Of a stretch of 64,000 nucleotides of DNA, positions 14,971-25,957 are shown piece after piece. A model generated the notes under the pieces. It was not told the origin of the DNA. It saw only the letters and a list, made by a program, of their open reading frames with translations, and made no database searches. The position numbers were made by a program, and so were the translations under genes. The DNA comes from Hugonella massiliensis (GTDB lineage: Bacteria; Actinomycetota; Coriobacteriia; Coriobacteriales; Eggerthellaceae), in NCBI GenBank assembly GCA_001486445.1, contig LN908986.1:1411895-1475894 (forward strand), given 5' to 3'. Numbering within the stretch: position 1 is the first letter of the stretch; each line of letters begins with the position of its first letter.

Positions 14971-14999
14971 CAGACCACCCCCGCGTGTGCGGGGAGCGC
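14971..14999 (-). repeat. Type I-E-like CRISPR repeat, solitary copy 1
   Basis: A 29-nt unit with the palindromic core CCCCGCGTGTGCGGGG followed by AGCGC. Read on the minus strand it has the G-C-TCCCCGC...GCGGGG pattern of type I-E repeats. No second repeat occurs within ordinary spacer distance. It lies ten bases from the stop of the first 84-residue gene. Confidence 0.6.
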
Positions 15000-15009
15000 A
15001 TGACTGCTC

Positions 15010-15264
15010 CTATTCCTCGAAGGCGGGCATGACAACCTCATAGCCCTCGTCGTCGACAATGCGCGGGCGCTTGAGCCCGTGCTTTGCGAAAATCTGCTTC
15101 ACCGCCAAGTCGAGCTCTATCACGCTGAGCGCCTTCACATGCTCGTCCAGCACGTATCCCTCCCATTTCTGAAACTTCGCATCGGCCGTGAACAACTGCG
15201 GGATCATCTCATCGTGCACCTTGCCCACGCACTTGTCGTTCCACATGATTGCCAACGTCTGCAT
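15010..15264 (-). CDS. 84-residue hypothetical protein, copy A of a tandem paralogue pair
   Basis: I do not recognise the family. The 84 residues start MQTLAIMWNDKCVGKV and end GLKRPRIVDDEGYEVVMPAF, and both ends are identical to copy B at 16022-16276. The central ~45 residues differ at about half the positions. There is no signal peptide or membrane helix; the protein is small, soluble and mildly acidic at the C-terminus. The first 45 coding bases are identical in the two copies, which points to a recent duplication or gene conversion. It ends ten bases from a solitary type I-E-like repeat, and the zinc-ribbon gene lies 75 nt upstream on the same strand. Its location beside a CRISPR locus invites a defence or anti-defence role, but nothing in the sequence proves one. 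Confidence 0.7.
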   Translation of the reverse strand: MQTLAIMWNDKCVGKVHDEMIPQLFTADAKFQKWEGYVLDEHVKALSVIELDLAVKQIFAKHGLKRPRIVDDEGYEVVMPAFEE

Positions 15265-15339
15265 GACCCCGCCTCTCCTCGAACGTCGTCCCGATTGTAG
15301 GGCAACAAAGCAGAGCAGCGCGCTGGAACGAAAAGGCGG

Positions 15340-15627
15340 CTATTTGAAAATCGAGGAGGGTGCACTTCCAAGCTTGTTCCCCTTTACCACCCACGAGTTG
15401 CCGCAGTCCTGGCAGATGGCTACCTTTTCCTGAACGGTCTTCGTTTTATTAGTGCCCTTCGATTTCTTCCAGAAGAGGTTCGACACCCCCAACGTCATAA
15501 CCGCAGTTGTCGCGCGCGCTGCGTTGTTCATATGTCCGCCGAAGCCAACCCCCTTTTTGTTAGTCATCTGCCCCTTTTCTACCATCTGGATGGTCACGTT
15601 GTTGGATCCGCAACTTGGGCACTGCAT
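15340..15627 (-). CDS. Small zinc-ribbon protein
   Basis: A 95-residue protein with two CxxC pairs, CPSC near the N-terminus and CQDC near residue 75, which would bind one zinc ion as a split zinc ribbon. Between them is a Gly/Ala-rich stretch with FGGHMNNAARATTAV and the NLFWKKSKG segment. The ATG at 15627 is chosen because the protein then opens with the first cysteine pair; the longer in-frame version has no recognisable sequence. The function is unknown. It lies upstream of the first 84-residue gene on the same strand, with a 75 nt gap, inside the segment bounded by solitary repeats 1 and 2. Confidence 0.72.
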   Translation of the reverse strand: MQCPSCGSNNVTIQMVEKGQMTNKKGVGFGGHMNNAARATTAVMTLGVSNLFWKKSKGTNKTKTVQEKVAICQDCGNSWVVKGNKLGSAPSSIFK

Positions 15628-15982
15628 TGTGCATGCTCCTCTCGTTCGTGCTATAGCGCACCTTGTCCTACAAACGACCAGGCAGTACGAGTATCGCTCG
15701 ACCATGAGCAGCGCACATTAGCTGTCAGCTAATAACGGAACCGCCAGCGGAAAGCAGCTTGGAGACAACATCGTTTGCGTTAGGTCGAACGCCAACCATT
15801 CTTGTGGGACATTCCATTCGGCGAAGCATTCAATCGGCCTGCCTACCGTCTCCTGAAAGGATTATTGAATGCCCTCAGCACATGGCATACCAGCACAAAG
15901 GAGACACGCGGTTGAGAGCGAAAAGGCCTTTCCGCCCGCAAGATAGCAGATAGGATTCATCAAGGGCCCCTTGGAACTGAAG
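15628..15982. other. Gene-free stretch inside the accessory island
   Basis: About 350 bases between the zinc-ribbon gene and solitary repeat 2. Short open frames occur on both strands but none has a convincing start, ribosome site or familiar sequence. It may hold the zinc-ribbon promoter or a decayed gene. Confidence 0.5.
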
Positions 15983-16011
15983 TGAACCCTCCCCGCGTGT
16001 GCGGGGAGCGC
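15983..16011 (-). repeat. Type I-E-like CRISPR repeat, solitary copy 2
   Basis: Same 29-nt frame as copy 1, with core CCCCGCGTGTGCGGGG then AGCGC. The next ~25 bases, which include the stop of the second 84-residue gene, are also shared with copy 1. This shows that repeat and gene end were duplicated together. Confidence 0.6.
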
Positions 16012-16021
16012 ATGACTGCTC

Positions 16022-16276
16022 CTATTCCTCGAACGCGGGCATCACGACTTCATAGCCCTCGTCGTCGACTATCCTCGGGCGCTTCAAACCGTGCCGCTTG
16101 AAAGCCTCGCGACACTTCATAGTGAGGTCGAGCGCACCGAATGCCTTTATCGGCTCATCGAGCACGTACCCACTCCATATTTGAAATTGAGCTTCGGAAG
16201 TCGGCAGCTGCTTCTTCATCCCGTCGCTCACCTTGCCCACGCACTTGTCGTTCCACATGATTGCCAACGTCTGCAT
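16022..16276 (-). CDS. 84-residue hypothetical protein, copy B of the paralogue pair
   Basis: Paralogue of the protein at 15010-15264, the same length with no gaps. The first 16 and last ~22 residues are identical between the copies. The centre (SDGMKKQLPTSEAQFQIW versus the copy A equivalent) has diverged. The 45 bases at the start of the gene match copy A exactly. The family is not recognised, and no membrane or export signal is present. It fills most of the 415-base segment between solitary repeats 2 and 3, like a single-gene cassette. The remaining ~150 bases upstream of the ATG presumably hold its promoter; I see no strong -35/-10 pair. Confidence 0.7.
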   Translation of the reverse strand: MQTLAIMWNDKCVGKVSDGMKKQLPTSEAQFQIWSGYVLDEPIKAFGALDLTMKCREAFKRHGLKRPRIVDDEGYEVVMPAFEE

Positions 16277-16426
16277 AGAACATCACTTCCCCATTGCTGC
16301 CGATGCACTCAAACAGATAGCGAATGAGCACGGTAACGCGAACGCTACCTGAACCATTAAGTCGTACATGCAACCTCTTACCATAGCCAACGCCTGAAAT
16401 GCCAGCCCGCTCGATGCAAGCGGTCT

Positions 16427-16455
16427 GGTATCAGCCCCGCGTGTGCGGGGAGCAC
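16427..16455 (-). repeat. Type I-E-like CRISPR repeat, solitary copy 3
   Basis: The best-preserved copy. On the minus strand it reads GTGCTCCCCGCACACGCGGG and continues GCTGATACC, 29 nt in all, very like an actinobacterial type I-E repeat. It abuts, in mid-gene, a truncated phage minor capsid reading frame. Confidence 0.65.
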
Positions 16456-17356
16456 TCACCAAGCTTCCCGACCGCAGTTTCGATGCCGAGCACCAGCGCT
16501 TCGTCATGGGGCCCAATGAGTACTACGAGGCCACGCAGCGGCAGCGGTCGATGGAGAGGGCGGCCGCAAGACCAAGCGCCAGGTAGCCGCGATGGAACAG
16601 GCGGGCGTCGGCCACGAGTCGCCGACCTCCGTGCAAAAGCGACTTGTGCTGGGGCGCCAGCAGAAGCGCCTGCGCGACTTCTGCAGCGCCAACCGCCTGC
16701 AGCGCATGCCCGACCGCGAGAGTGCCTACGGAGTGGCCAAGCAGCCAAGGGCGCTCACGGGCGAGAAGTGGAAGGGCGAAAGGGGAATACCGAAGAAGAA
16801 GAACGCCTTGGAAGGGGCTGAAGTGGACCTGAAGCTCATAGCTTCAAAAGAGTACGCCTCCTCATTCAAAGGCCTGACCGGCAATGACGCAGCAGACAAA
16901 GCAGTCTTGCAAGCTGCCAGGATGATGCTCACTCATAGGAGCGGGACGCATGGCGAGGACCTTTGCCTCGTTTCGATCGTCGACGGTGAAGTGAAGGTGT
17001 CGGTCACTGACAGCAAAGGATTTCTCGCGGTGACGCCGACAAGCGACATTCTAGACGCCGTTTCGAGCAATCCAGAGGGGACGTTGTTCTCAGTGCACAA
17101 CCATCCGAGCAACATACCGCCTATCGGTTCCGATCTCGCCGTATCGGCGTCGAGAAGGTACACAGGCGCCATTGTTGTTCTCCATGATGGCGGTGTGTAC
17201 TATTACAAGCATGGGGATATAGCGTTCACTTCAACGCTCTTCGATATGAAGTGCACTGAGCTGGTAAGCGCGGGCAAGTCCCAAACGGAAGCTGCGATCG
17301 AAGTGCTCGACGAGTTCAAGAAAAGGCACGGTGTCAAATGGAAAAAATTAAGGTAG
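16456..17356 (+). pseudogene. Phage minor capsid C-terminal fragment joined to a JAB/MPN-like metallopeptidase domain
   Basis: The 5' end is missing, cut at solitary repeat 3. The first readable residues (TKLPDRSFDAEHQRF, then EYYEATQRQRSMER) resemble the C-terminal part of phage minor capsid (gp2-like) proteins. A one-base frameshift near 16558-16568 moves the frame. After it the text continues KTKRQVAAMEQAGVG and LVLGRQQKRLRDFC, again capsid-like. From ~16830 the frame becomes a different domain of ~170 residues with FSVHNHPSNIPPIGSDL at about 17090-17137. That fits the H-x-H-P-x7-S-x-D zinc site of JAB/JAMM (RadC-like) peptidases. Phage head proteins often carry such C-terminal effector domains. 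From the ATG at 16592 an uninterrupted frame of 254 residues remains, so the JAB part could still be expressed. The partner gene overlaps its end. Confidence 0.6.
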
Positions 17357-17532
17357 GAGTAAAGCATCCAGAGCGACTTTCCATCCCCGACGCTCCCGTT
17401 TCGTGGAAATACGAAGGGTATACGGAAGAAGAGATAAAGGAAATCATAGCTATCGAGGAACAGAAGTCGTTGGCGATGGGCCACTGGCCTAAGCGCGGCG
17501 AGTTCCCAGACGATTGGCCAAACAACGTGTAA
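17338..17532 (+). CDS. Small 64-residue protein overlapping the JAB-domain frame
   Basis: The protein begins MEKIKVGVKHPERLSIPDAP and ends GEFPDDWPNNV. It is rich in Glu, Lys and Pro, with a helix-like centre (YTEEEIKEIIAIEEQKSLAM). The family is not recognised. The start overlaps the last 19 bases of the JAB-domain frame in another phase, so translation is probably coupled. A strong terminator follows 18 nt after the stop. Overlap with a gene for a possible effector, small size and a shared terminator suggest a cognate partner such as an immunity protein or cofactor. This rests on position only. Confidence 0.55.
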   Translation: MEKIKVGVKHPERLSIPDAPVSWKYEGYTEEEIKEIIAIEEQKSLAMGHWPKRGEFPDDWPNNV

Positions 17533-17550
17533 CGGACCGTATTAATGCAG

Positions 17551-17574
17551 GCCCCGCTTCGGCGGGGCTTTTTT
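17551..17574 (+). terminator. Rho-independent terminator of the JAB/partner pair
   Basis: Hairpin GCCCCGC-TTCG-GCGGGGC followed by six T residues on the plus strand. Confidence 0.9.
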
Positions 17575-17722
17575 CATGCCCTCGTGCCGAAAGCGACACC
17601 TGCGCGACCATCTCATCATCGCCTGGCCCGAGTGGAGAGGGCCGCATCGCGAGCGCCGAGCGGAGAGGCGCAACGTCAGCCGCGCAGTAAAGCGCGAACC
17701 ACACACGAGGGATGAAGCAGGC

Positions 17723-17863
17723 ATGGCAGAGGAAGCAAGCCAGCAGGCAGCCGCGCAGGAAGCGCCGAAGGGAGGCCTCGACCTCTCCGAGGCGAATAAG
17801 CGCCTCGGAGAGGTCGAGCAGGAATCGCCCCCGCGCGCGCGGGGAGCGCTATTTGTAATATAA
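17723..17863 (+). pseudogene. Truncated phage scaffold-like reading frame
   Basis: The ATG at 17723 has a GAGGGATG ribosome site. The text starts MAEEASQQAAAQEAPKGGLD and continues with a charged helix (LSEANKRLGEVEQE), the typical look of a phage scaffold protein N-terminus. In tailed phages this gene follows the minor capsid gene. The frame runs into solitary repeat 4 after ~32 residues and stops soon after, so the gene is cut exactly at the repeat. Sequence at ~17590-17720 looks like the end of another phage gene. Scaffold identity is inferred from composition and order only. Confidence 0.4.
17821..17849 (-). repeat. Type I-E-like CRISPR repeat, solitary copy 4
   Basis: Core CCCCGCGCGCGCGGGG, differing at one base from the other copies, followed by AGCGC. 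Same orientation as copies 1-3. It ends the phage-derived segment and lies 132 bases from the type II-A array. Confidence 0.55.
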
Positions 17864-17981: not shown

Positions 17982-19918
17982 GTTTAACTACCAGTCAGAA
18001 CGACACTGCTCCAAAACAATCCACGCACCCGCGAGGGGTGCGACACGTTTGATTACCAGTCAGAACGACACTGCTCCAAAACAAGTTGTTGTTCGGCGCC
18101 GGTTCTAGCTTGGTTTGCTTACCAGTCAGAACGACACTGCTCCAAAACAACACAAACCTATATTTATGGCTTTCGTCTGTTTGCTTACCAGTCAGAACGA
18201 CACTGCTCCAAAACCTTCGCGCATCCGCCTTTCCCGTTCCAGGTGTTTGCTTACCAGTCAGAACGACACTGCTCCAAAACCGGGCACGCATGACTGTCCG
18301 ATGAATGACGGTTTGCTTACCAGTCAGAACGACACTGCTCCAAAACCACCGTTGACACTTATGCCCCCAGCTTGCCGTTTGCTTACCAGTCAGAACGACA
18401 CTGCTCCAAAACAACATCTCCGAATACGACAAGAACAAGGTAGTTTGCTTACCAGTCAGAACGACACTGCTCCAAAACGCATCCCTTGCGCCAATCGCGG
18501 GCCATTGCGTTTGCTTACCAGTCAGAACGACACTGCTCCAAAACGGTTTTCGCAGTGCGTACGGCTGTCGAAAGTTTGCTTACCAGTCAGAACGACACTG
18601 CTCCAAAACATGCTCAGAAGGCCGTGCGAGCTTGTGGTGGTTTGCTTACCAGTCAGAACGACACTGCTCCAAAACGCCACGCGCTCGTGCAGACGCGCTG
18701 CATTAGTTTGCTTACCAGTCAGAACGACACTGCTCCAAAACATGCCCCTTCCACGATGGTTGCCATTGCTGTTTGCTTACCAGTCAGAACGACACTGCTC
18801 CAAAACTACACGACGCCCAGCACGGACGGGCGGAAGTTTGCTTACCAGTCAGAACGACACTGCTCCAAAACGATGACCCCGAACACAACAACGGGGATAA
18901 GTTTGCTTACCAGTCAGAACGACACTGCTCCAAAACGAGCGCACGCTGGGGAAGAAGATTCACAGGTTTGCTTACCAGTCAGAACGACACTGCTCCAAAA
19001 CGCAGCCCTTGCTCCAATCGCGGGCCATGGCGTTTGCTTACCAGTCAGAACGACACTGCTCCAAAACGAGCGCACGCTGGGGAAGAAGATTCACAGGTTT
19101 GCTTACCAGTCAGAACGACACTGCTCCAAAACCCGCCTGAAAGCCTTGAGCTCAGCCGCCGAGTTTGCTTACCAGTCAGAACGACACTGCTCCAAAACCG
19201 AGCACCCGTTACAACCAGCTCGACGTTGTTTGCTTACCAGTCAGAACGACACTGCTCCAAAACCGAGCACCCGTTACAACCAGCTCGACGTTGTTTGCTT
19301 ACCAGTCAGAACGACACTGCTCCAAAACTCAAACGCCATGCGGTTGAGTTCGAGCATCGTTTGCTTACCAGTCAGAACGACACTGCTCCAAAACTGATGC
19401 AAGCGGGAATCGTGTCTTTTTCGAGTTTGCTTACCAGTCAGAACGACACTGCTCCAAAACATCGACCTTGTGCGTGTGGTTGATTCGCGGTTTGCTTACC
19501 AGTCAGAACGACACTGCTCCAAAACGCGCAAGGTCACGGCTGCAATTGCCAAGGGGTTTGCTTACCAGTCAGAACGACACTGCTCCAAAACGTTTCCTTT
19601 CTCTCGGTTGCCTTCTTATTGTTTGCTTACCAGTCAGAACGACACTGCTCCAAAACTTCACATTCATCGTGCTTTAGCGTTTTCGAGTTTGCTTACCAGT
19701 CAGAACGACACTGCTCCAAAACGAAGTCATCGCGTCAGAAGTCGAGATCATGGTTTGCTTACCAGTCAGAACGACACTGCTCCAAAACAGCTGTCTTCGT
19801 GTGATATCATGATGCAAGTTTGCTTACCAGTCAGAACGACACTGCTCCAAAACCGTCTATGTGGTCTACTATCTCGTATTTAGTTTGCTTACCAGTCAGA
19901 ACGACACTGCTCCAAAAC
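17982..19918 (-). CRISPR. Type II-A CRISPR array: 30 repeats of 36 nt, 29 spacers of 29-30 nt
   Basis: Repeat starts run from 17982 to 19883 in steps of 65-66 bases. On the plus strand each repeat begins GTTTGCTTACCAGTCAGAAC and ends CTGCTCCAAAAC. On the minus strand it opens GTTTTGGAGCAGTG, the classic 5' end of a type II-A repeat, so crRNAs come from the minus strand, the same as cas9. The repeats at 17982 and 18047 differ within positions 5-7 (AAC and GAT in place of GCT). Degenerate repeats mark the old, leader-distal end, so new spacers enter next to csn2 at 19918. Spacers 18937-18965 and 19068-19096 are identical, as are 19199-19227 and 19264-19292. Spacers 18479-18508 and 19002-19031 differ at three bases. 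Reading frames across this region are artefacts. Confidence 0.98.
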
Positions 19919-19967: not shown

Positions 19968-20657
19968 TCACCAAGACTCTTCAACAAAGTCCTGGTCAAT
20001 AAGCAGTTTTTTCTCTCTTCCAAGAATATGCTCACGATGGCCGCGCTCAACAAGAAGAAGGCAAATTCTGGAAAAAAATGCCTGATCGTACAACGATTCC
20101 AGCTCCGATTCCGTTAAATATGCCGTCAAATTCACGAAGAGTAGCGGTCGATCGAGCCGCACATCCGAGGCAAGAGAGATAAGTAATATCAACTTGTCAA
20201 TGAGCGGCCCAGCATCGTCAACGTCAACACCGAAGCGAAACGTTTTCAATAGCTTGGGCACGTCCCATTCTAAGGCAAAGCTATAGTCGCCGTTCATCTT
20301 GAAGGCAACAAGGGTAACGAGGTTTTTCAGCTCGGCAAAGCCTCTTTCGAAGTCCTGTCTACAGCCATCTTCCTCGAAAGCGATATTCTCGAATCTCGAA
20401 AAGAGAGCGCCCGCCAAGCAGCGATCGTCCCAGGGAATCATCAGAGGCGAGGGCACCGAAAGGAATGCGTTGGCAGCACGAATCTCCTTCCCAGCATCGT
20501 CCCAAATCGTATAAGGCTCCTTCGCCTCTTCTCCAAGACCTGAACACAGAGATTCTGCCACCCTCGAAAACAGCGTGGGGTTTTCTATCTCCAGCACAAA
20601 CGGTCTATCGGGGGAAAGGGCAAGGGCATGTTCTACGCCTTCGATGTTAACCCTCAT
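19968..20657 (-). CDS. csn2: Csn2, type II-A adaptation protein
   Basis: A 229-residue protein, the normal length for Csn2 (about 220). Csn2 forms a tetrameric ring around linear double-stranded DNA ends and is needed with Cas1, Cas2 and Cas9 to capture new spacers. Identity is supported by the opening MRVNIEGVEHALALSPDRPF, a middle region with helix-rich segments, and the beta-strand PLLFVNLTAYLTESELESLY typical of the family's degenerate P-loop fold. Its position as the last cas gene before the array defines subtype II-A. The ATG overlaps the cas2 stop (ATGA). The G+C content is lower than in flanking core genes. Confidence 0.88.
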   Translation of the reverse strand: MRVNIEGVEHALALSPDRPFVLEIENPTLFSRVAESLCSGLGEEAKEPYTIWDDAGKEIRAANAFLSVPSPLMIPWDDRCLAGALFSRFENIAFEEDGCRQDFERGFAELKNLVTLVAFKMNGDYSFALEWDVPKLLKTFRFGVDVDDAGPLIDKLILLISLASDVRLDRPLLFVNLTAYLTESELESLYDQAFFSRICLLLVERGHREHILGREKKLLIDQDFVEESW

Positions 20658-20962
20658 AGGACCAAGAGCTCCTCCGGAGAGTCCACCTCGTCGAAATCAC
20701 CGCGCTTTCCCGTAACATACGTCATCGTTTCGAATTGACGCTCCGTCACCTTCAGCACTTGAACCAGCCCATGCGGCGGACGATATTTCTCCATGCGCGC
20801 TATTGCGGCATCAGCCGCTGCATCGGTGACCACGAGCTTGACATACACCGATTCTTGCATCATGAGAAAACCCTCTTTGATCAGGTTCTTTCGAAACCGC
20901 CGGTAGTCCTTGCGTTGCTTCGCTGTTTCAACCGGAAGGTCGAAAAAGCATACGAGTCGCAT
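20654..20962 (-). CDS. cas2: Cas2, CRISPR integration complex subunit
   Basis: A 102-residue protein that bridges two Cas1 dimers in the spacer integrase. It begins MRLVCFFDLPVETAKQRKDY with the ferredoxin-like first strand and the conserved aspartate. ESVYVKLV and the later VLKVTERQFE strand follow. The ATG at 20962 is chosen for the GGGGAAG ribosome site eight bases upstream; a GTG at 20989 is in frame but adds nine residues ahead of the conserved strand. With the ATG there is a 23-base gap after cas1 and a 4-base overlap with csn2. Confidence 0.95.
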   Translation of the reverse strand: MRLVCFFDLPVETAKQRKDYRRFRKNLIKEGFLMMQESVYVKLVVTDAAADAAIARMEKYRPPHGLVQVLKVTERQFETMTYVTGKRGDFDEVDSPEELLVL

Positions 20963-20985
20963 GTATCTTCCCCACTCAATAGAAC

Positions 20986-21864
20986 TCACGGAACATCAAA
21001 GCCTTCGATTTCATCGACGCATATCTTTTTATTAAGTGCGTTCAGGCAATCTTGCACATAGAGGCTCACAACGGAATGAAGCTTGTAGAACCCGCCCCTA
21101 TACGCAAGCTGCGAATTACCCACATCTACAAGCACGCGCTTCTCGTCTTTCCCGAATGAGCCGTTAATGTAGGTGCACACCAAGCGGTCGACGACGGGGC
21201 GAAAGGGTTCCATAAAATCACACGCGAGGTTCAGCTGGTTATATTCGTTCCTGTGGTTGACACCCATCTGAGTAAGATAACCGCGAGCTGCAATTTCCCG
21301 GCTTACCATCGAAAGCAAGATGGCGTACCCATAATCCAGACCCGCATTAATCGCGCAGTCAGCGCTACGGCTGAAATCAGCACCGAAGAGGGCGCTGAAA
21401 TAAATACGAGCTGCTTGCGCTTCTCGATTCGTTGCATCCCCGGAACGCACCTCAAGTACCGCTCCATGCAACGTTTTCGCTTCCTTCAGAAAGTCGTTAT
21501 CCTCCAGGACACGTGCTTGCTGAAATATCTTATCCTTCACCACACGTTGCCACACGCGCTTTTTGATCGGCAGCCCCCATTCAAGCTGCTCGTTAACGCG
21601 CGCACTCACATTGTGGGCACCGTAAAGCGGTAAGTACTGTCCTATGGGGTTATGCTTCTCGTCGGACACCACGAGAGGAATCTTGTTCTTCGCAAGTTCC
21701 GCCAACAAGTAGGCGCTCATCATTACCTGTTCGGTTCCAAGAACGAGAGACGAGATCTCCGACAGATGAATCTTCGTCGTATTGTCCTGCTGTCGGACAC
21801 AGAGGTACCCCGATTGATACGAGCAACGGCACGGGTTTTCAATTAAGACTGTCCTAAAGGCCAA
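20986..21864 (-). CDS. cas1: Cas1, CRISPR integrase
   Basis: A 292-residue type II Cas1, the metal-dependent integrase that inserts protospacers at the leader-proximal repeat. The active-site glutamate lies in NREAQAARIYFSALFG (near residue 149), the histidine in GVNHRNEYNQ and the acidic residue in ACDFMEPFRP. The N-terminal beta-sheet domain (KIHLSEISSLVLGTEQVMMS) is normal. Its start overlaps the cas9 stop by 11 bases, so the two are translationally coupled. No truncation or frameshift is visible, so adaptation should be possible. Confidence 0.97.
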   Translation of the reverse strand: MAFRTVLIENPCRCSYQSGYLCVRQQDNTTKIHLSEISSLVLGTEQVMMSAYLLAELAKNKIPLVVSDEKHNPIGQYLPLYGAHNVSARVNEQLEWGLPIKKRVWQRVVKDKIFQQARVLEDNDFLKEAKTLHGAVLEVRSGDATNREAQAARIYFSALFGADFSRSADCAINAGLDYGYAILLSMVSREIAARGYLTQMGVNHRNEYNQLNLACDFMEPFRPVVDRLVCTYINGSFGKDEKRVLVDVGNSQLAYRGGFYKLHSVVSLYVQDCLNALNKKICVDEIEGFDVP

Positions 21865-24800
21865 TTTCTTGCCGCCTTTCGAACATGCCTGTTACTGACT
21901 GGTCGATGAGAGCAGTTGTGCTATTTGAACTTAGTTCTTTGCTAAGAGTCAGCTGAATTTTACCCGCGAACGAAGGGCCATTTATCAGCTTCAGATTAGC
22001 GACATTTTTTTGCGCATTCACCAAATTCAAAATCTCGCAAATTATCTGCTGTTTGCCTTCCTCATTCAAGGAATAAAACGCTCGTGCACGTTCCTCGATC
22101 CGCAATAGACCTTCCTGCCTGGTCGCGTATCTATGAAGAAAACGCAGCAACGTGCCAAACGCTTCATCCAGTACGGCTTCATATCCCGTAGGATCGTCAG
22201 CCTCAATAGCCTCAGCCTCCGCAAGGCTAAAGCACGGCTCGATAGCGTTGCGCACTTCTTTATTACCGCGGATATAGAAGCGCTCCCCGTCAATCTCTAT
22301 CAGCTGATCCTGAAGAATCTTCCTTCGTACAATGGCTTCGAACGCAAGCCCTTCATTACGCGCAAGTTGTTCGGCATACTCAGACAGCACGAGATCGCCA
22401 CGTTTAATGCGAGAAGCGACAGAAACGGGAACGCCCGCATAGCGCAGCACCCTGCCCTTGGAACCTTCTGCTCTATACACGAAGAAATATGCGTTCTTAA
22501 GACTCGAATAGCCACCATATCGTGCAGGATCGAGACCACCCTTTAACGGAATGGTCGGCTTAGTTCTCCCGCCCTTCGGCGAGTAGATCGTCGCGTCCCA
22601 GAACGTTCCCGTCTCCTCGATAGGCATCCGCGAAATGAAGCACTGCCGATAGTTCATAAACTTTTTGATACGTGCGACTTCCGCATCTGCATCCCACGTA
22701 TCGCGGAAAATTTCACCGGTCTCCTTACTGAAGCCTGAGGTAAGGAAACTCTGCACGATAAATGAAGCGTCCTCGGGAAGACGCTTGGTCTTCGCATAGC
22801 GTTCGGCCTGCTCCTGAATGTATTTTCTGATCACATGTTGAAGTGCCACCGGGTTATCGAACACGATGCTATGCCTCAGCTCTATGAAGCGGCCCATCTC
22901 TTCAGCGAGATAGGCATCATGCGCATGGTGGAAGTCGTTCGCGATACGTGATTTGACCAAACCGCGGCGTACACGCAATTGGTGAGACAAGCTCGCCTTG
23001 ATAGACCGAACGTTGGTTTCCGGATAGCGCTCCTGCAGCATCGTGCGCACGAACTTGACCACTTGGCTTGTTTCAACAATCTGCCGATTAATGAAGCCCT
23101 TCATCTGCATGTTCGAGATGTGGCTACGCATAAGGTTGTTGAACTTCTTCTCCCCCATCAACCCGGCATCGTGAAGAGCCCGCCACGTCGGCGCCATTTT
23201 CCTGCGAATCGCATCGCTGAGCAGAAGCGAGTCCGTTTTACGTTGATTCTCTTCCGCGAGAACGAGCGCCTTGTTTTCGAAGCTGTCATCTTTCGTATAG
23301 GACTGCGGGATAATATGGTCTACCTGATAGGACGAAAGCTTCCTGATATCGAGCGGAGCACCCGAATAGAGCGACTTTCCGTTCTGCATGAAGTACAGCG
23401 CGAGCCGTTCGGTGTCGAGTTCTGCATACGACCTGCTCGCAAGGTCCTTCTTCAGATCTGCATCCGCTTCAGCGCCGAGCTTCTTCAAGGCCTCTTTAAT
23501 CGCATCGTAACGCTTCTTGGTGCGCTTGCCGCGTTTATCGACATCATCATCTCTCGTCGTTTCGATATAGATGTTCGCAGGCGCGCATCCTGCAATCGAA
23601 ACGATTTCATCTACGATTTTGAGCGCCTGATTAACGCTCCTGCGCAACGCAGGCGATCCGGGGATTTCGTCGATGCCGAGCTTCCCATGGGATTCCATCC
23701 ATGCCTTATTAGCTTCGGCGATGGCTTTTTCAAATCCCAGGTTATCGTCGTGGAGCGCCTCCATGAGCACCATCGCCGCACCCGGGTGGTTGTTGTTGGG
23801 GTCTCCCTCTTCAAGAACGTCCATGATTGACTTAGCGCCATTATCGGTCGGCACCGTGATACCCGTTAAGAACTTTTTCGAGAGCCGGCCCCATCCCGTA
23901 AAGCGCTTCTTGCAAATCTGCCTGATTTGGCTGGGCGAAAGCACGTCCCCGTAATGCCGTTGGATCCCTTCTTTCAAAATGTCGCGATCTTCGAACAGCG
24001 TGTTCCACAGCACGAGATTCTCGATCATTTCAATAGTCTGGGCATCAAAATCATCGATCCCAAGCACCTTTTTGAAGAAGAGATATGATCCAAGTTTAGA
24101 CTCGAACCCGGTTTCCCCTTGGCCGCCCTTTACGTGAGCGTTCAAGGCGATATTCTCACTTCGTAGCCAGTGTTCAATCTTCTTGTACGTAACCGTGCCG
24201 CGCGTAAATAGCTCATCGAAGATGCGCGCACGCAAATCGTACGAGAAGCGATGCCAATCGTCTCCGTCCTGAGACCAACGCGCCCCATTGAGCTCATTTA
24301 GCACGCAGAATTTTTCATACAGAAGCGACGCGCGGGGCAAGACTGGCTCGCCCTGAAGATAGGTGCAGGTTCCCGTCATGCGCTGAATAAACGCGGCTGC
24401 ACTCGCGTGCTTGTCGATTACCTCTTCCCAGTTCCACGGGCGAATTGGAGTGTTCTCTTTGCCAGGGTTGCGCACCGACCAAGCAAAGCGGGGCTCCCCA
24501 TGCGCAACCGCAGCGTTCTTCTGCGTGAGAGGTCCCACGTAATAAGGGATTCTGAACGTGACGAGAGACTCGATTTCCTTCTCGTGTTTCTTGAGGAAGG
24601 GATAATACCTACCCTGGTTCGCAATAATCGCCTTCATTTCTTCCAGATGGAGCTGGAAGGGGATGCTGCCGTTATCGCTTGTCTTCAGGCGACGGAGAAA
24701 CGTCTGCTCGTCGAAACGACCCATCATCTTGATATACCGTTCATCCGATTCGGCGCCTGTACCCTTGAAAAGTTTCTTAACCTGCGAAGCGAAATCGTCA

Positions 24801-25957
24801 TAGGAAAGCTTGGTGGTACCCAGATTGTAGAGCGTGTAGCCTTTAGCCTTCGAAGGATCGTAGTCTTTTGAGCAGGCACCTTCATAGTGGGGCCCACGGA
24901 AAAACTCATCATACCGAGTAGGGGCATACTGCCGCACTAAGTCTTTGAGTTCGCGCAAGTCTTTGCCGTACTGCTCGTATTCGTTGACCTTGCAGTAGGA
25001 AATCGTGCGCCCATCCCCTCCTTTGAGAATGCCCTGAAGGATAAAAGAAGAGTGCGCAGCCAGGAGAGAATCGAACAATTCGGCACCCTCGTCGGGAACC
25101 GAGCTGCGGAATTCTTCGACGGCGGCGTCATTAGAAAGATCGAATGTCGGGTCGTCGGTCTCAAGAAAGAATACCTTTTTCAGATCGGCTTTGTAGCCGA
25201 GGACGGCGCCGATAACCTGCTTCGCAATACGCTTATGGGCTGCGTCGGTCTCTAGCCCGAGGAACGGTAATCCCTTATCACGCATTTCGCCTCGCGAAAG
25301 CGAGACATCTTCCAGAACAGCGCGCAGCTTTTCGGGTTTTGGTTCGCAGGAACTTTCCGGGTCCACCTCGCCCATCCATTCTGCAAGGGCAGAGCAAAGA
25401 CGATCGACCGACTCTTTCATGTTGGCGTTCTTTGCGCTTAAGCGTTCGTTGTCCTGATGCAGAAAATTGCCACGCGTTTTCACTATGTTGTGAAGCGCGA
25501 GGTATACAAGCCGCACATCTGCTTGCTCGTCGGTTTCCATTAGCCACACGCGCAGGTGGTAGATCGTCGGGAACTTTTTGTAGTAATCACATTCGTTGAA
25601 ATCTTCATCGTTAAAGAGGGGCCAATGGTATGCGGCATGCTGCGGGTCGCGGTCTTGCGGCCACAGCTGTGACTGACGAAGCCGAATGAAGAATTCAGGA
25701 TCCACGGAAGCCATCGGCTCCAGGAAGAAGTCCTGCAGGAGGTCGAGTCGTTGCCTGCGCCTATCATAACGGCGGCGCTGTCCGCGATGGACACGTGCTT
25801 CTGCAGCGGTATTGGCACTGGGAAAAAGGCGGCTCCCCCAAGTAGGCTGTTTCTTGAAATGGTACAGTTCCCCGTTTTCATCGGTTACCGCCCACCCGAC
25901 TGAGCCCGTGCCGAGGTCGAGACCGATATTGTAATTTTCCGCATGCCTCAGTTGCAT
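21854..25957 (-). CDS. cas9: Cas9 nuclease, type II-A
   Basis: A 1367-residue RNA-guided double-strand DNA nuclease, matching the size of the large II-A Cas9 proteins. RuvC-I has IGLDLGTGSVGWAV with catalytic D14. The arginine-rich bridge helix follows (RRRYDRRRQRLDLL, ~61-74). A large helical recognition lobe occupies ~75-780. RuvC-II has IYIETTRDDD with E799. HNH has YQVDHIIPQS with D880/H881 and N904. RuvC-III has FHHAHDAYL with H1011 and D1014. The C-terminal ~300 residues form the wedge and PAM-interacting part, whose specificity I cannot read. All catalytic residues are present, so it should cut. ATG at 25957 follows AGGGG six bases upstream. Transcription runs away from the tracrRNA gene, and a cas9 mRNA beginning upstream would be antisense to it. 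Base composition is clearly less GC-rich than the neighbours, consistent with horizontal gain. Confidence 0.98.
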   Translation of the reverse strand: MQLRHAENYNIGLDLGTGSVGWAVTDENGELYHFKKQPTWGSRLFPSANTAAEARVHRGQRRRYDRRRQRLDLLQDFFLEPMASVDPEFFIRLRQSQLWPQDRDPQHAAYHWPLFNDEDFNECDYYKKFPTIYHLRVWLMETDEQADVRLVYLALHNIVKTRGNFLHQDNERLSAKNANMKESVDRLCSALAEWMGEVDPESSCEPKPEKLRAVLEDVSLSRGEMRDKGLPFLGLETDAAHKRIAKQVIGAVLGYKADLKKVFFLETDDPTFDLSNDAAVEEFRSSVPDEGAELFDSLLAAHSSFILQGILKGGDGRTISYCKVNEYEQYGKDLRELKDLVRQYAPTRYDEFFRGPHYEGACSKDYDPSKAKGYTLYNLGTTKLSYDDFASQVKKLFKGTGAESDERYIKMMGRFDEQTFLRRLKTSDNGSIPFQLHLEEMKAIIANQGRYYPFLKKHEKEIESLVTFRIPYYVGPLTQKNAAVAHGEPRFAWSVRNPGKENTPIRPWNWEEVIDKHASAAAFIQRMTGTCTYLQGEPVLPRASLLYEKFCVLNELNGARWSQDGDDWHRFSYDLRARIFDELFTRGTVTYKKIEHWLRSENIALNAHVKGGQGETGFESKLGSYLFFKKVLGIDDFDAQTIEMIENLVLWNTLFEDRDILKEGIQRHYGDVLSPSQIRQICKKRFTGWGRLSKKFLTGITVPTDNGAKSIMDVLEEGDPNNNHPGAAMVLMEALHDDNLGFEKAIAEANKAWMESHGKLGIDEIPGSPALRRSVNQALKIVDEIVSIAGCAPANIYIETTRDDDVDKRGKRTKKRYDAIKEALKKLGAEADADLKKDLASRSYAELDTERLALYFMQNGKSLYSGAPLDIRKLSSYQVDHIIPQSYTKDDSFENKALVLAEENQRKTDSLLLSDAIRRKMAPTWRALHDAGLMGEKKFNNLMRSHISNMQMKGFINRQIVETSQVVKFVRTMLQERYPETNVRSIKASLSHQLRVRRGLVKSRIANDFHHAHDAYLAEEMGRFIELRHSIVFDNPVALQHVIRKYIQEQAERYAKTKRLPEDASFIVQSFLTSGFSKETGEIFRDTWDADAEVARIKKFMNYRQCFISRMPIEETGTFWDATIYSPKGGRTKPTIPLKGGLDPARYGGYSSLKNAYFFVYRAEGSKGRVLRYAGVPVSVASRIKRGDLVLSEYAEQLARNEGLAFEAIVRRKILQDQLIEIDGERFYIRGNKEVRNAIEPCFSLAEAEAIEADDPTGYEAVLDEAFGTLLRFLHRYATRQEGLLRIEERARAFYSLNEEGKQQIICEILNLVNAQKNVANLKLINGPSFAGKIQLTLSKELSSNSTTALIDQSVTGMFERRQEIGL

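What the first reader, a model, noticed from the sequence alone, without database searches (positions are those of the whole stretch)
14971..17849. Four lone type I-E-like repeats in one orientation bound gene-sized segments next to a type II-A array
Seen: 29-nt units at 14971, 15983, 16427 and 17821 share the CCCCGCG-YG-GCGGGGAGC core and lie all in the same direction. The gaps are 983, 415 and 1365 bases, not the ~32 of a real array. The segments hold a zinc-ribbon gene plus an 84-residue gene, a second 84-residue gene, and a phage fragment. Known: type I-E repeats have this hairpin. Inference: either an old I-E array opened up by insertions or recombination, or a cassette site where such repeats act as joining points. 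No type I-E cas gene is in the window.
Basis: partly seen in the sequence, partly recalled or inferred. Interest (0 to 1): 0.8.

Follow-up and report, generated by a model that had tools for sequence, protein, structure and literature searches.

The report
Gene-sized inserts between CRISPR repeats
Four leftover CRISPR repeats in this bacterium fence off gene-sized pieces of DNA, one of them a phage toxin-type module, and arrays of related bacteria show the same layout many times, as if CRISPR arrays could store whole genes and not only short spacers.

Summary
Four 29-nt units (R1-R4) share a type I-E repeat core, lie on one strand with gaps of 983, 415 and 1365 bp, and are the only copies found in the 2.09-Mb genome. 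Outside the hairpin they still match the I-E repeat (24 of 40 positions, P=3e-6). cas6e and cse1 were not found, so they are orphan I-E repeats.

The layout is not private to this locus. In 36 array regions with type II-A repeats (own included), 59 gaps of 124-2536 bp lie between near-perfect repeats in 17 regions, beside normal spacers, named isolates included. Identified pieces are phage or mobile genes, some starting mid-gene at the repeat: a terminase piece in Lancefieldella rimae and, repeatedly, the C-terminal part of MuF/minor-head proteins plus the next small gene. Segment R3-R4 is such a piece.

Best reading: a relic array with giant spacers. Capture of long DNA by Cas1-Cas2, with retention of useful immunity genes, is inferred, not shown. 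Against it: giants are trailer-biased and carry an end signature that normal spacers lack. My searches found no published description.

The parts
14971..14999 (-). R1, orphan type I-E repeat (reads GCGCTCCCCGCACACGCGGGGGTGGTCTG on the minus strand)
15000..15982 (.). segment 1, 983 bp between R1 and R2
   Evidence: tblastx to IMG/VR phage locus L094 over the zinc-ribbon part, 29 residues, E 6e-8
15010..15264 (-). 84-residue gene a, no Pfam family; 87% identical copy in sister G001 at the same locus without the repeat
15340..15705 (-). zinc-ribbon protein gene (weak Pfam matches below cut-off); its G001 homologue is cut off by the II-A array
15983..16011 (-). R2, orphan type I-E repeat
16012..16426 (.). 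segment 2, 415 bp between R2 and R3
16022..16276 (-). 84-residue gene b (69% identical to a), duplicated together with its repeat
16427..16455 (-). R3, orphan type I-E repeat, closest of the four to the consensus
16456..17820 (+). segment 3, 1365 bp phage head-module piece: minor-head (MuF-type) protein C-terminal part from nt 3 onward, small gene, terminator, start of a scaffold-like gene (the last by eye)
16592..17356 (+). ORF of 254 aa, C-terminal part of a phage minor-head protein; the stretch before it is in another frame
17338..17532 (+). 64-residue gene directly downstream, in the position of an immunity gene (function inferred from position only)
17821..17849 (-). R4, orphan type I-E repeat (2 changes in the core loop)
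17982..19918 (.). type II-A array, 30 repeats, 29 normal spacers, no giant gap
19968..25957 (-). csn2, cas2, cas1, cas9 of the II-A locus

Best explanation
R1-R4 are the repeats of an orphan type I-E array whose 'spacers' are gene-sized. Pieces of phage or mobile-element DNA of 0.4-1.4 kb sit between repeats where a 32-nt spacer would be. The same architecture occurs in many arrays with type II-A repeats in the class Coriobacteriia and at a few other I-E sites. How it most likely arises: a long DNA fragment is joined between two copies of the repeat, most simply as an oversized spacer integrated by Cas1-Cas2 with duplication of the repeat; pieces that carry a working immunity or antitoxin gene are kept, while normal spacers are lost by recombination, so giants collect at the old end and outlive the cas genes. 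Shown: repeats, boundaries, recurrence, phage cargo in part of the pieces. Inferred: the integrase and the selection.
For: Repeat identity. Census: 59 gaps of 124-2536 bp between repeats with at most 2 mismatches (41 of 59 with none on either side), in 17 of 36 array regions; 690 normal spacers over all 36, 205 of them in those 17. Of all gaps outside 25-36 nt only one (74 nt, G003) lies between 37 and 123 nt, so the lengths are bimodal. Perfect repeats flank giants in arrays with cas9-cas1-cas2-csn2 beside them: G044, G065, G173; Lancefieldella rimae ATCC 49626 has 7 giants in 12 gaps beside csn2, cas2 and a cas1 cut by the end of the fetched stretch. Phage homology reaching a repeat: window segment 3 from nt 3 (E 7e-7); L. 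rimae g1, an internal piece of a large terminase whose IMG/VR homologue has a frame of 580 residues, aligned to its last codon; L. rimae g7 matches minor-head phrog_115 from residue 1, O. phocaeensis g11 Phage_min_cap2 from residue 2, G065 g20 VG15 from residue 4. I-E gaps in G366 (tblastx) and G089 (by eye) hold the same phage region. 8 of 8 IMG/VR phage stretches with one of these toxin domains hold no such repeat. In 15 of 15 toxin-plus-small-gene pieces picked by eye the small gene is complete.
Against: The window's own I-E repeats have decayed and no normal I-E spacer is left among them (0 of 3 gaps), so this locus alone cannot tell giant spacers from later insertion. Seven I-E arrays in genomes with cse1 have 368 normal gaps; their one gene-sized gap inside the array region (G366, 1036 bp) ends at a repeat with 7 mismatches, and the third G089 repeat has 6. 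Giants lie nearer the trailer (mean relative position 0.34 against 0.50, 0 of 20000 shuffles), as later insertion would also give. 56 giants have a purine excess at the second base of the leader-side end (G 28, A 16; max-column P=0.003) that 681 normal spacers lack, so the process may differ from normal acquisition. Several giants share a boundary, which suggests duplication or a preferred cut. Two regions counted (G029, A. agrestimuris) have no normal spacer at all and look like decayed arrays. In L. rimae g1 the 15 residues at the other end do not align. No DNA-level source of a giant was found. Two of 59 hide a damaged repeat; two carry transposase-like ORFs by eye. Only 20 of 65 pieces match the phage panel. 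Segment 1 genes exist in G001 without I-E units.
Confidence: 0.6

Rival explanations
1. Late insertion: array parts that are no longer used collect foreign DNA by illegitimate recombination or by mobile elements, and the repeats survive by chance.
For: Trailer bias of giants; decayed repeats around the giants of G066, Adlercreutzia agrestimuris and the window; transposase-like ORFs in two giants by eye; five giant-bearing arrays lie in genomes where Cas9 was not found.
Against: 41 of 59 strict giants have perfect repeats on both sides; random insertion should hit repeats (more than half of an array) and leave half-repeats inside the gap, but only 2 of 59 hold an exact 12-mer of one repeat consensus (array-specific variants could be missed); phage homology reaches the repeat at one side in several pieces; giants also occur beside cas genes.
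Confidence: 0.22
2. Double homologous recombination: two old spacers matching the same phage act as homology arms, and the phage stretch between them replaces the array part in between.
For: Would give repeat-exact boundaries without Cas proteins and would favour old array parts; conserved phage regions recur as cargo.
Against: Predicts a PAM motif inside the giant about 30 nt from one end. In 56 giants no position 26-42 from either end is clearly enriched (KL at most 0.10, noise about 0.04).
Confidence: 0.08
3. A cassette system: an unknown recombinase uses CRISPR repeats as attachment sites, as an integrase uses attC.
For: One orientation of repeats, toxin/immunity-like cargo, duplicated repeat+gene blocks in the window, non-random bases at one giant end.
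Against: Some cargo has no complete gene of its own (terminase piece) and cargo lies in both orientations (by eye); normal spacers alternate with giants in the same array. No recombinase was sought.
Confidence: 0.07
4. Solitary repeats with a regulatory or anti-CRISPR role (CreTA-like, or RNA anti-CRISPRs of phages).
For: Lone, degenerate repeats are known for such elements (PMC9458426: abstract and passages; PMC10651486: start of abstract in a search listing).
Against: cas6e and cse1 not found, four co-oriented copies with gene-sized gaps, same layout with II-A repeats.
Confidence: 0.03

Closest known systems
Type I-E CRISPR arrays of the order (e.g. genomes G018, G359)
   Same: Repeat sequence: G359 has the identical core GCTCCCCGCACACGCGGGG; one orientation
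   Different: Those arrays have almost only 28-37-nt gaps and their genomes have cse1; the window has gene-sized gaps and no cse1 or cas6e
Arrays with type II-A repeats and gene-sized gaps in Coriobacteriia, found here
   Same: Same-orientation repeats bound pieces of similar size and partly the same kind, MuF toxin region included
   Different: Other repeat family; perfect repeats and normal spacers are interleaved in most of them
MuF polymorphic toxins of temperate phages (PMC5576092, abstract read)
   Same: Segment 3 and several giants hold the C-terminal part of a minor-head/MuF protein and the next small gene
   Different: In phages the domain is fused to the whole MuF protein; here the head part is cut at a CRISPR repeat
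Integron gene cassettes (recalled)
   Same: Hairpin sites in one orientation between small genes
   Different: No attC structure or IntI shown; sites are CRISPR repeats; pieces include gene fragments
CreTA and other ectopic repeats (PMC9458426, abstract and passages)
   Same: Degenerate repeats outside a normal array
   Different: Need the cognate Cascade, of which cas6e and cse1 were not found here; one or two repeats in most cases

Membership tests
Type I-E CRISPR-Cas array | 28-29-nt repeat with the GCTCCCCGC-GCGGGG hairpin and ATGATCC-like 3' part | tested here: met
   core 19/19 in R1-R3, 17/19 in R4; flanks 24 of 40
Type I-E CRISPR-Cas array | spacers of about 32 nt | tested here: not met
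   gaps 983, 415, 1365
Type I-E CRISPR-Cas array | I-E cas genes (cas6e, cse1) in the genome | tested here: not met
   TIGR01907, TIGR02547: none in G000
Giant-gap CRISPR array (group described here) | co-oriented repeats bounding pieces over 100 bp | tested here: met
   the window's repeats are partly decayed (2-6 mismatches to consensus)
Giant-gap CRISPR array (group described here) | phage or mobile cargo starting at the repeat | tested here: met
   segment 3, homology from nt 3 after R3; not shown for segments 1 and 2
Giant-gap CRISPR array (group described here) | normal spacers interleaved | tested here: not met
   0 of 3 gaps
Integron cassette array | integrase IntI and attC sites | not tested
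   no search made for IntI
CreTA / RNA anti-CRISPR | cognate Cascade in the cell | tested here: not met
   cas6e and cse1 not found
Ordinary intergenic palindrome (REP-like) | many copies genome-wide | tested here: not met
   4 copies in 2.09 Mb, all here

The most novel reading that the evidence does not exclude
CRISPR adaptation in Coriobacteriia, in both type II-A and type I-E arrays, captures kilobase-long DNA as giant spacers, and the arrays thereby serve as banks of phage toxin-immunity and toxin-antitoxin genes: protein-level memory next to RNA-guided memory, by a reaction close to the casposon-like ancestor of Cas1.
Probability: 0.35. Interest if true: 0.95.

Novelty: new variant of a known kind. 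Interest (0 to 1): 0.75.

Why it matters
CRISPR spacers are thought to be held near 30 nt by the Cas1-Cas2 ruler (recalled). Arrays in which many intervals are gene-sized would break that rule, would be passed over by detection programs that expect short spacers (recalled), and would let an immune memory locus collect whole immunity genes. The recurrent MuF toxin region gives a testable reason for keeping them, and the system offers a natural case for the step from casposon-like integration to CRISPR adaptation.

Tried and rejected
1) Generic palindrome: rejected, 4 copies only. 2) 'Only arrays without Cas9 have giants': first suggested because Cas9 was found in 0 of 5 giant-bearing genomes but in 4 of 5 normal-only ones (G130, with only two repeats, lacks it); then contradicted by G044, G065, G066, G173 and L. 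rimae. 3) Double recombination between two spacers: internal-PAM test negative. 4) Phages carry the repeats: 8 phage stretches with a toxin domain have none; the I-E 19-mer occurs in 4 IMG/VR stretches, three of them with short mini-arrays of 49-61-nt period, not gene-sized gaps. 5) Source phage at DNA level: none; protein-level relatives only. 6) Normal spacers against giants and phage loci: only short matches, best 21 nt at E 2e-4 and 19 nt at E 1e-5. 7) Left out of the census: 6.2-kb distances in G016 and G156a, which reach a repeat-like site near the far end of the cas operon; an N-filled gap in G044; G130; and of the 49 stretches those that repeat regions already fetched or hold one or two repeats, and L144 (32 repeats, no large gap). 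Of 43 genomes with a DNA match, 24 were fetched; the census is not exhaustive. In one search the printed '37-123: 0' counts only gaps above 100 nt; the full list is. 8) Family searches: 7 of 10 pieces had a match in Pfam and 7 of 10 in PHROGs; the rest had none. 9) Literature: 9 searches, titles and abstract starts seen; none listed describes gene-sized spacers. Passages of PMC8616872 were read. Most subscription papers and bioRxiv preprints are not held.
Full report
THE OBSERVATION. Window 14971-17849 holds four 29-nt units on one strand at the stated places, with gaps of 983, 415 and 1365 bp. The core is exact in three and has two changes in the fourth. In the whole genome (2.09 Mb, 9 contigs) the core pattern with up to one mismatch occurs four times, all here, all on one strand. 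The palindrome alone at two mismatches is near chance (24 against 14.6 expected). Read on the minus strand the units are GYGCTCCCCGC..GCGGGG plus eight bases; outside the 19-nt core 24 of 40 positions agree with the I-E consensus of relatives (P=2.8e-6). So these are type I-E repeats, partly decayed. cas6e was not found in the genome (8 of 149 genomes have it, not this one), nor was cse1 (0 of 4 genomes with lone units, 7 of 7 with a real array).

WHAT LIES BETWEEN. R1 and R2 belong to a duplicated block, repeat + 17 nt + an 84-residue gene. Sister species G001 carries the 84-residue gene and a zinc-ribbon gene at the same locus without any I-E unit; there the II-A array cuts the zinc-ribbon gene. 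Segment 3 is phage DNA: from its third base it reads as the C-terminal part of a minor-head (MuF-type) protein (tblastx of its first 150 bases: E 7e-7 to prophage locus L063, whose frame goes on upstream). It lies in two frames, so it is not one intact gene. tblastn finds phage minor-capsid proteins (best E 3e-13, 5 records), and 16 of 149 genomes have relatives, own genome included. A complete 64-residue gene, a terminator and a scaffold-like start (by eye) follow, and R4 cuts the last ORF.

THE KEY FIND. One relative of that phage piece, in G082, starts directly at a type II-A repeat. That contig has 16 repeat-like sites in one orientation with 7 gaps of 497-1001 bp among 29-30-nt spacers; the last site reads as a tracrRNA anti-repeat (by eye). 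I then collected arrays with such repeats: 10 of 149 genomes with the exact motif, own included, more by DNA similarity (43 of 198 genomes, 24 of them fetched), and 49 stretches in the GTDB collection. I scanned 36 array regions from at most 33 genomes (G046 and E06b18, the two G156 and the two P4559 regions are one genome each; the window is one of the 36). Result: 690 normal spacers; 84 gaps of 100-3000 bp in 21 regions, 59 of them between repeats with at most two mismatches, in 17 regions, 41 with perfect repeats on both sides; lengths 124-2536; one gap of 74 nt is the only one between 37 and 123. The 17 regions hold 205 normal spacers; two of them (G029, A. agrestimuris) hold none. Named strains include Lancefieldella rimae ATCC 49626, Olsenella phocaeensis Marseille-P2936T, Olsenella sp. 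Marseille-P4559 and Adlercreutzia agrestimuris DSM 109821, so a metagenome-assembly artefact is unlikely as a general cause, though I could not see reads. Two of the 59 hide a damaged repeat 30 nt from one end.

WITH AND WITHOUT CAS GENES. At first giants seemed limited to genomes without Cas9 (found in 0 of 5, against 4 of 5 normal-only genomes). The wider set contradicts this: G044, G065, G066 and G173 have the cas operon beside giants, and L. rimae has csn2, cas2 and a cas1 cut by the stretch end beside 7 giants. Giants lie nearer the trailer: mean relative position 0.34, 0 of 20000 shuffles as low, 15 arrays, 50 giants (the leader side is known from csn2 where present and assumed equal elsewhere).

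CARGO. L. rimae g1 is an in-frame internal piece of a phage large terminase; the alignment (72%) covers residues 16-199 of 199, so it reaches the repeat at one side and leaves 15 residues at the other; the IMG/VR homologue has an open frame of 580 residues. HMM matches begin at or next to the boundary in three minor-head pieces: L. rimae g7 (PF04233 E 2e-13; phrog_115 from residue 1), O. phocaeensis g11 (PF06152, from residue 2), G065 g20 (PF25310, from residue 4). Others: papain-fold toxin 1 (PF15644, G082 g5), HipA C-terminal domain (G065 g4 above cut-off; G011 gap 11 below), nucleotidyltransferase (G114 gap 14), head scaffold (G046 g7, phrog_194). Three of the ten proteins had no match in each library. 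Against a panel of 28 phage and prophage loci 20 of 65 pieces match by tblastx; the panel was fetched with window segment 3, G082 g5 and L. rimae g1 and g7 as queries, so those four match by construction, window segment 1 does not. The terminator GGGGCTTTTTTCATGCC or a near form is shared by window segment 3 and pieces of G065, G081 and G082. Type I-E gaps in G366 (1036 bp; tblastx) and G089 (1093 bp; by eye) hold the same phage region, each with one decayed flanking repeat. In 15 toxin-plus-small-gene pieces chosen by eye the small gene is complete in 15; the choice was mine and partly depended on seeing the gene, and for three further pieces from such regions (G081 g1, G366, O. phocaeensis g5) I could not name a complete immunity gene. 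'Immunity' rests on position only. MuF toxins of temperate phages were described in PMC5576092 (abstract read).

MECHANISM. Four models were weighed. (a) Capture of a long fragment with repeat duplication, as Cas1-Cas2 does with 30-nt fragments, explains repeat-exact boundaries, perfect repeats, interleaving with normal spacers and gene fragments as cargo. (b) Late insertion explains the trailer bias but not the rarity of broken repeats. (c) Recombination between two spacers predicts a PAM inside the piece about 30 nt from one end; 56 pieces show none at positions 26-42 from either end. (d) A site-specific recombinase is open. The second base at the leader-side end is G in 28 and A in 16 of 56 pieces (max-column P=0.003 against random internal windows), not so in 681 normal spacers. 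So the pieces have a sequence-dependent end, and it is not the signature of normal spacers. Some pairs share a boundary: G082 g1/g12 in opposite orientation, O. phocaeensis g11/g13 (same start, the second with an IS-like ORF), and the two window blocks. I favour (a) with retention of useful genes, without certainty.

THE WINDOW AGAIN. The I-E units fit as the relic of such an array: all three gaps are gene-sized, one is the phage region that recurs in giants, and the locus lies beside a II-A array with 29 normal spacers and its cas genes. Two arrays with II-A repeats and giants likewise lie next to another type of array with cas1 and cas2 (G011, G114); in G011 a cas12a-like and a cas4-like ORF follow, named by eye, while the G114 contig ends inside cas1. 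Seven I-E arrays in genomes with cse1 hold 368 normal gaps, one of 72 nt, and one gene-sized gap at a decayed trailer repeat; a 6.4-kb distance in G120 to a 7-mismatch site was not counted.

NOVELTY. Nine full-text searches list no description of gene-sized spacers; only titles and abstract starts were seen, and the library lacks most subscription papers and preprints. I rate it a new variant of a known kind: CRISPR repeats and phage modules are known, their regular combination is not known to me.

Noticed in passing
L069:7058-7180 (G082): The array's last 'repeat' reads by eye as a tracrRNA anti-repeat followed by a terminator, 29 nt after the last true repeat, with no Cas9 found in the genome: the cas operon may have been lost by recombination between a repeat and the anti-repeat.
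   Followed up: partly
L076:12300-19901 (G011), L077:9850-14588 (G114): Arrays with II-A-type repeats and giant gaps lie beside another array type with cas1 and cas2; G011 also has cas12a-like and cas4-like ORFs (by eye), the G114 contig ends in cas1.
   Followed up: partly
L037:9735-9838 (G001): In the sister species the trailer end of an 82-repeat II-A array cuts the zinc-ribbon gene.
   Followed up: partly
window 18901-19263: Two spacers of the window's II-A array occur twice (27 distinct of 29), a sign of internal duplication.
   Followed up: no
L048:2628-2768, L049:4714-5012, L051:1403-1543: IMG/VR viral contigs carry short mini-arrays of varied I-E-like repeats.
   Followed up: partly
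L055:9733-10479 (G043): A distant relative of the 84-residue gene lies just before a gene that looks by eye like a Phd/YefM antitoxin.
   Followed up: no
L052:11304-13989 (G089): The lone I-E units of G089 lie beside genes that look by eye like parts of a Wadjet-type defence system.
   Followed up: no
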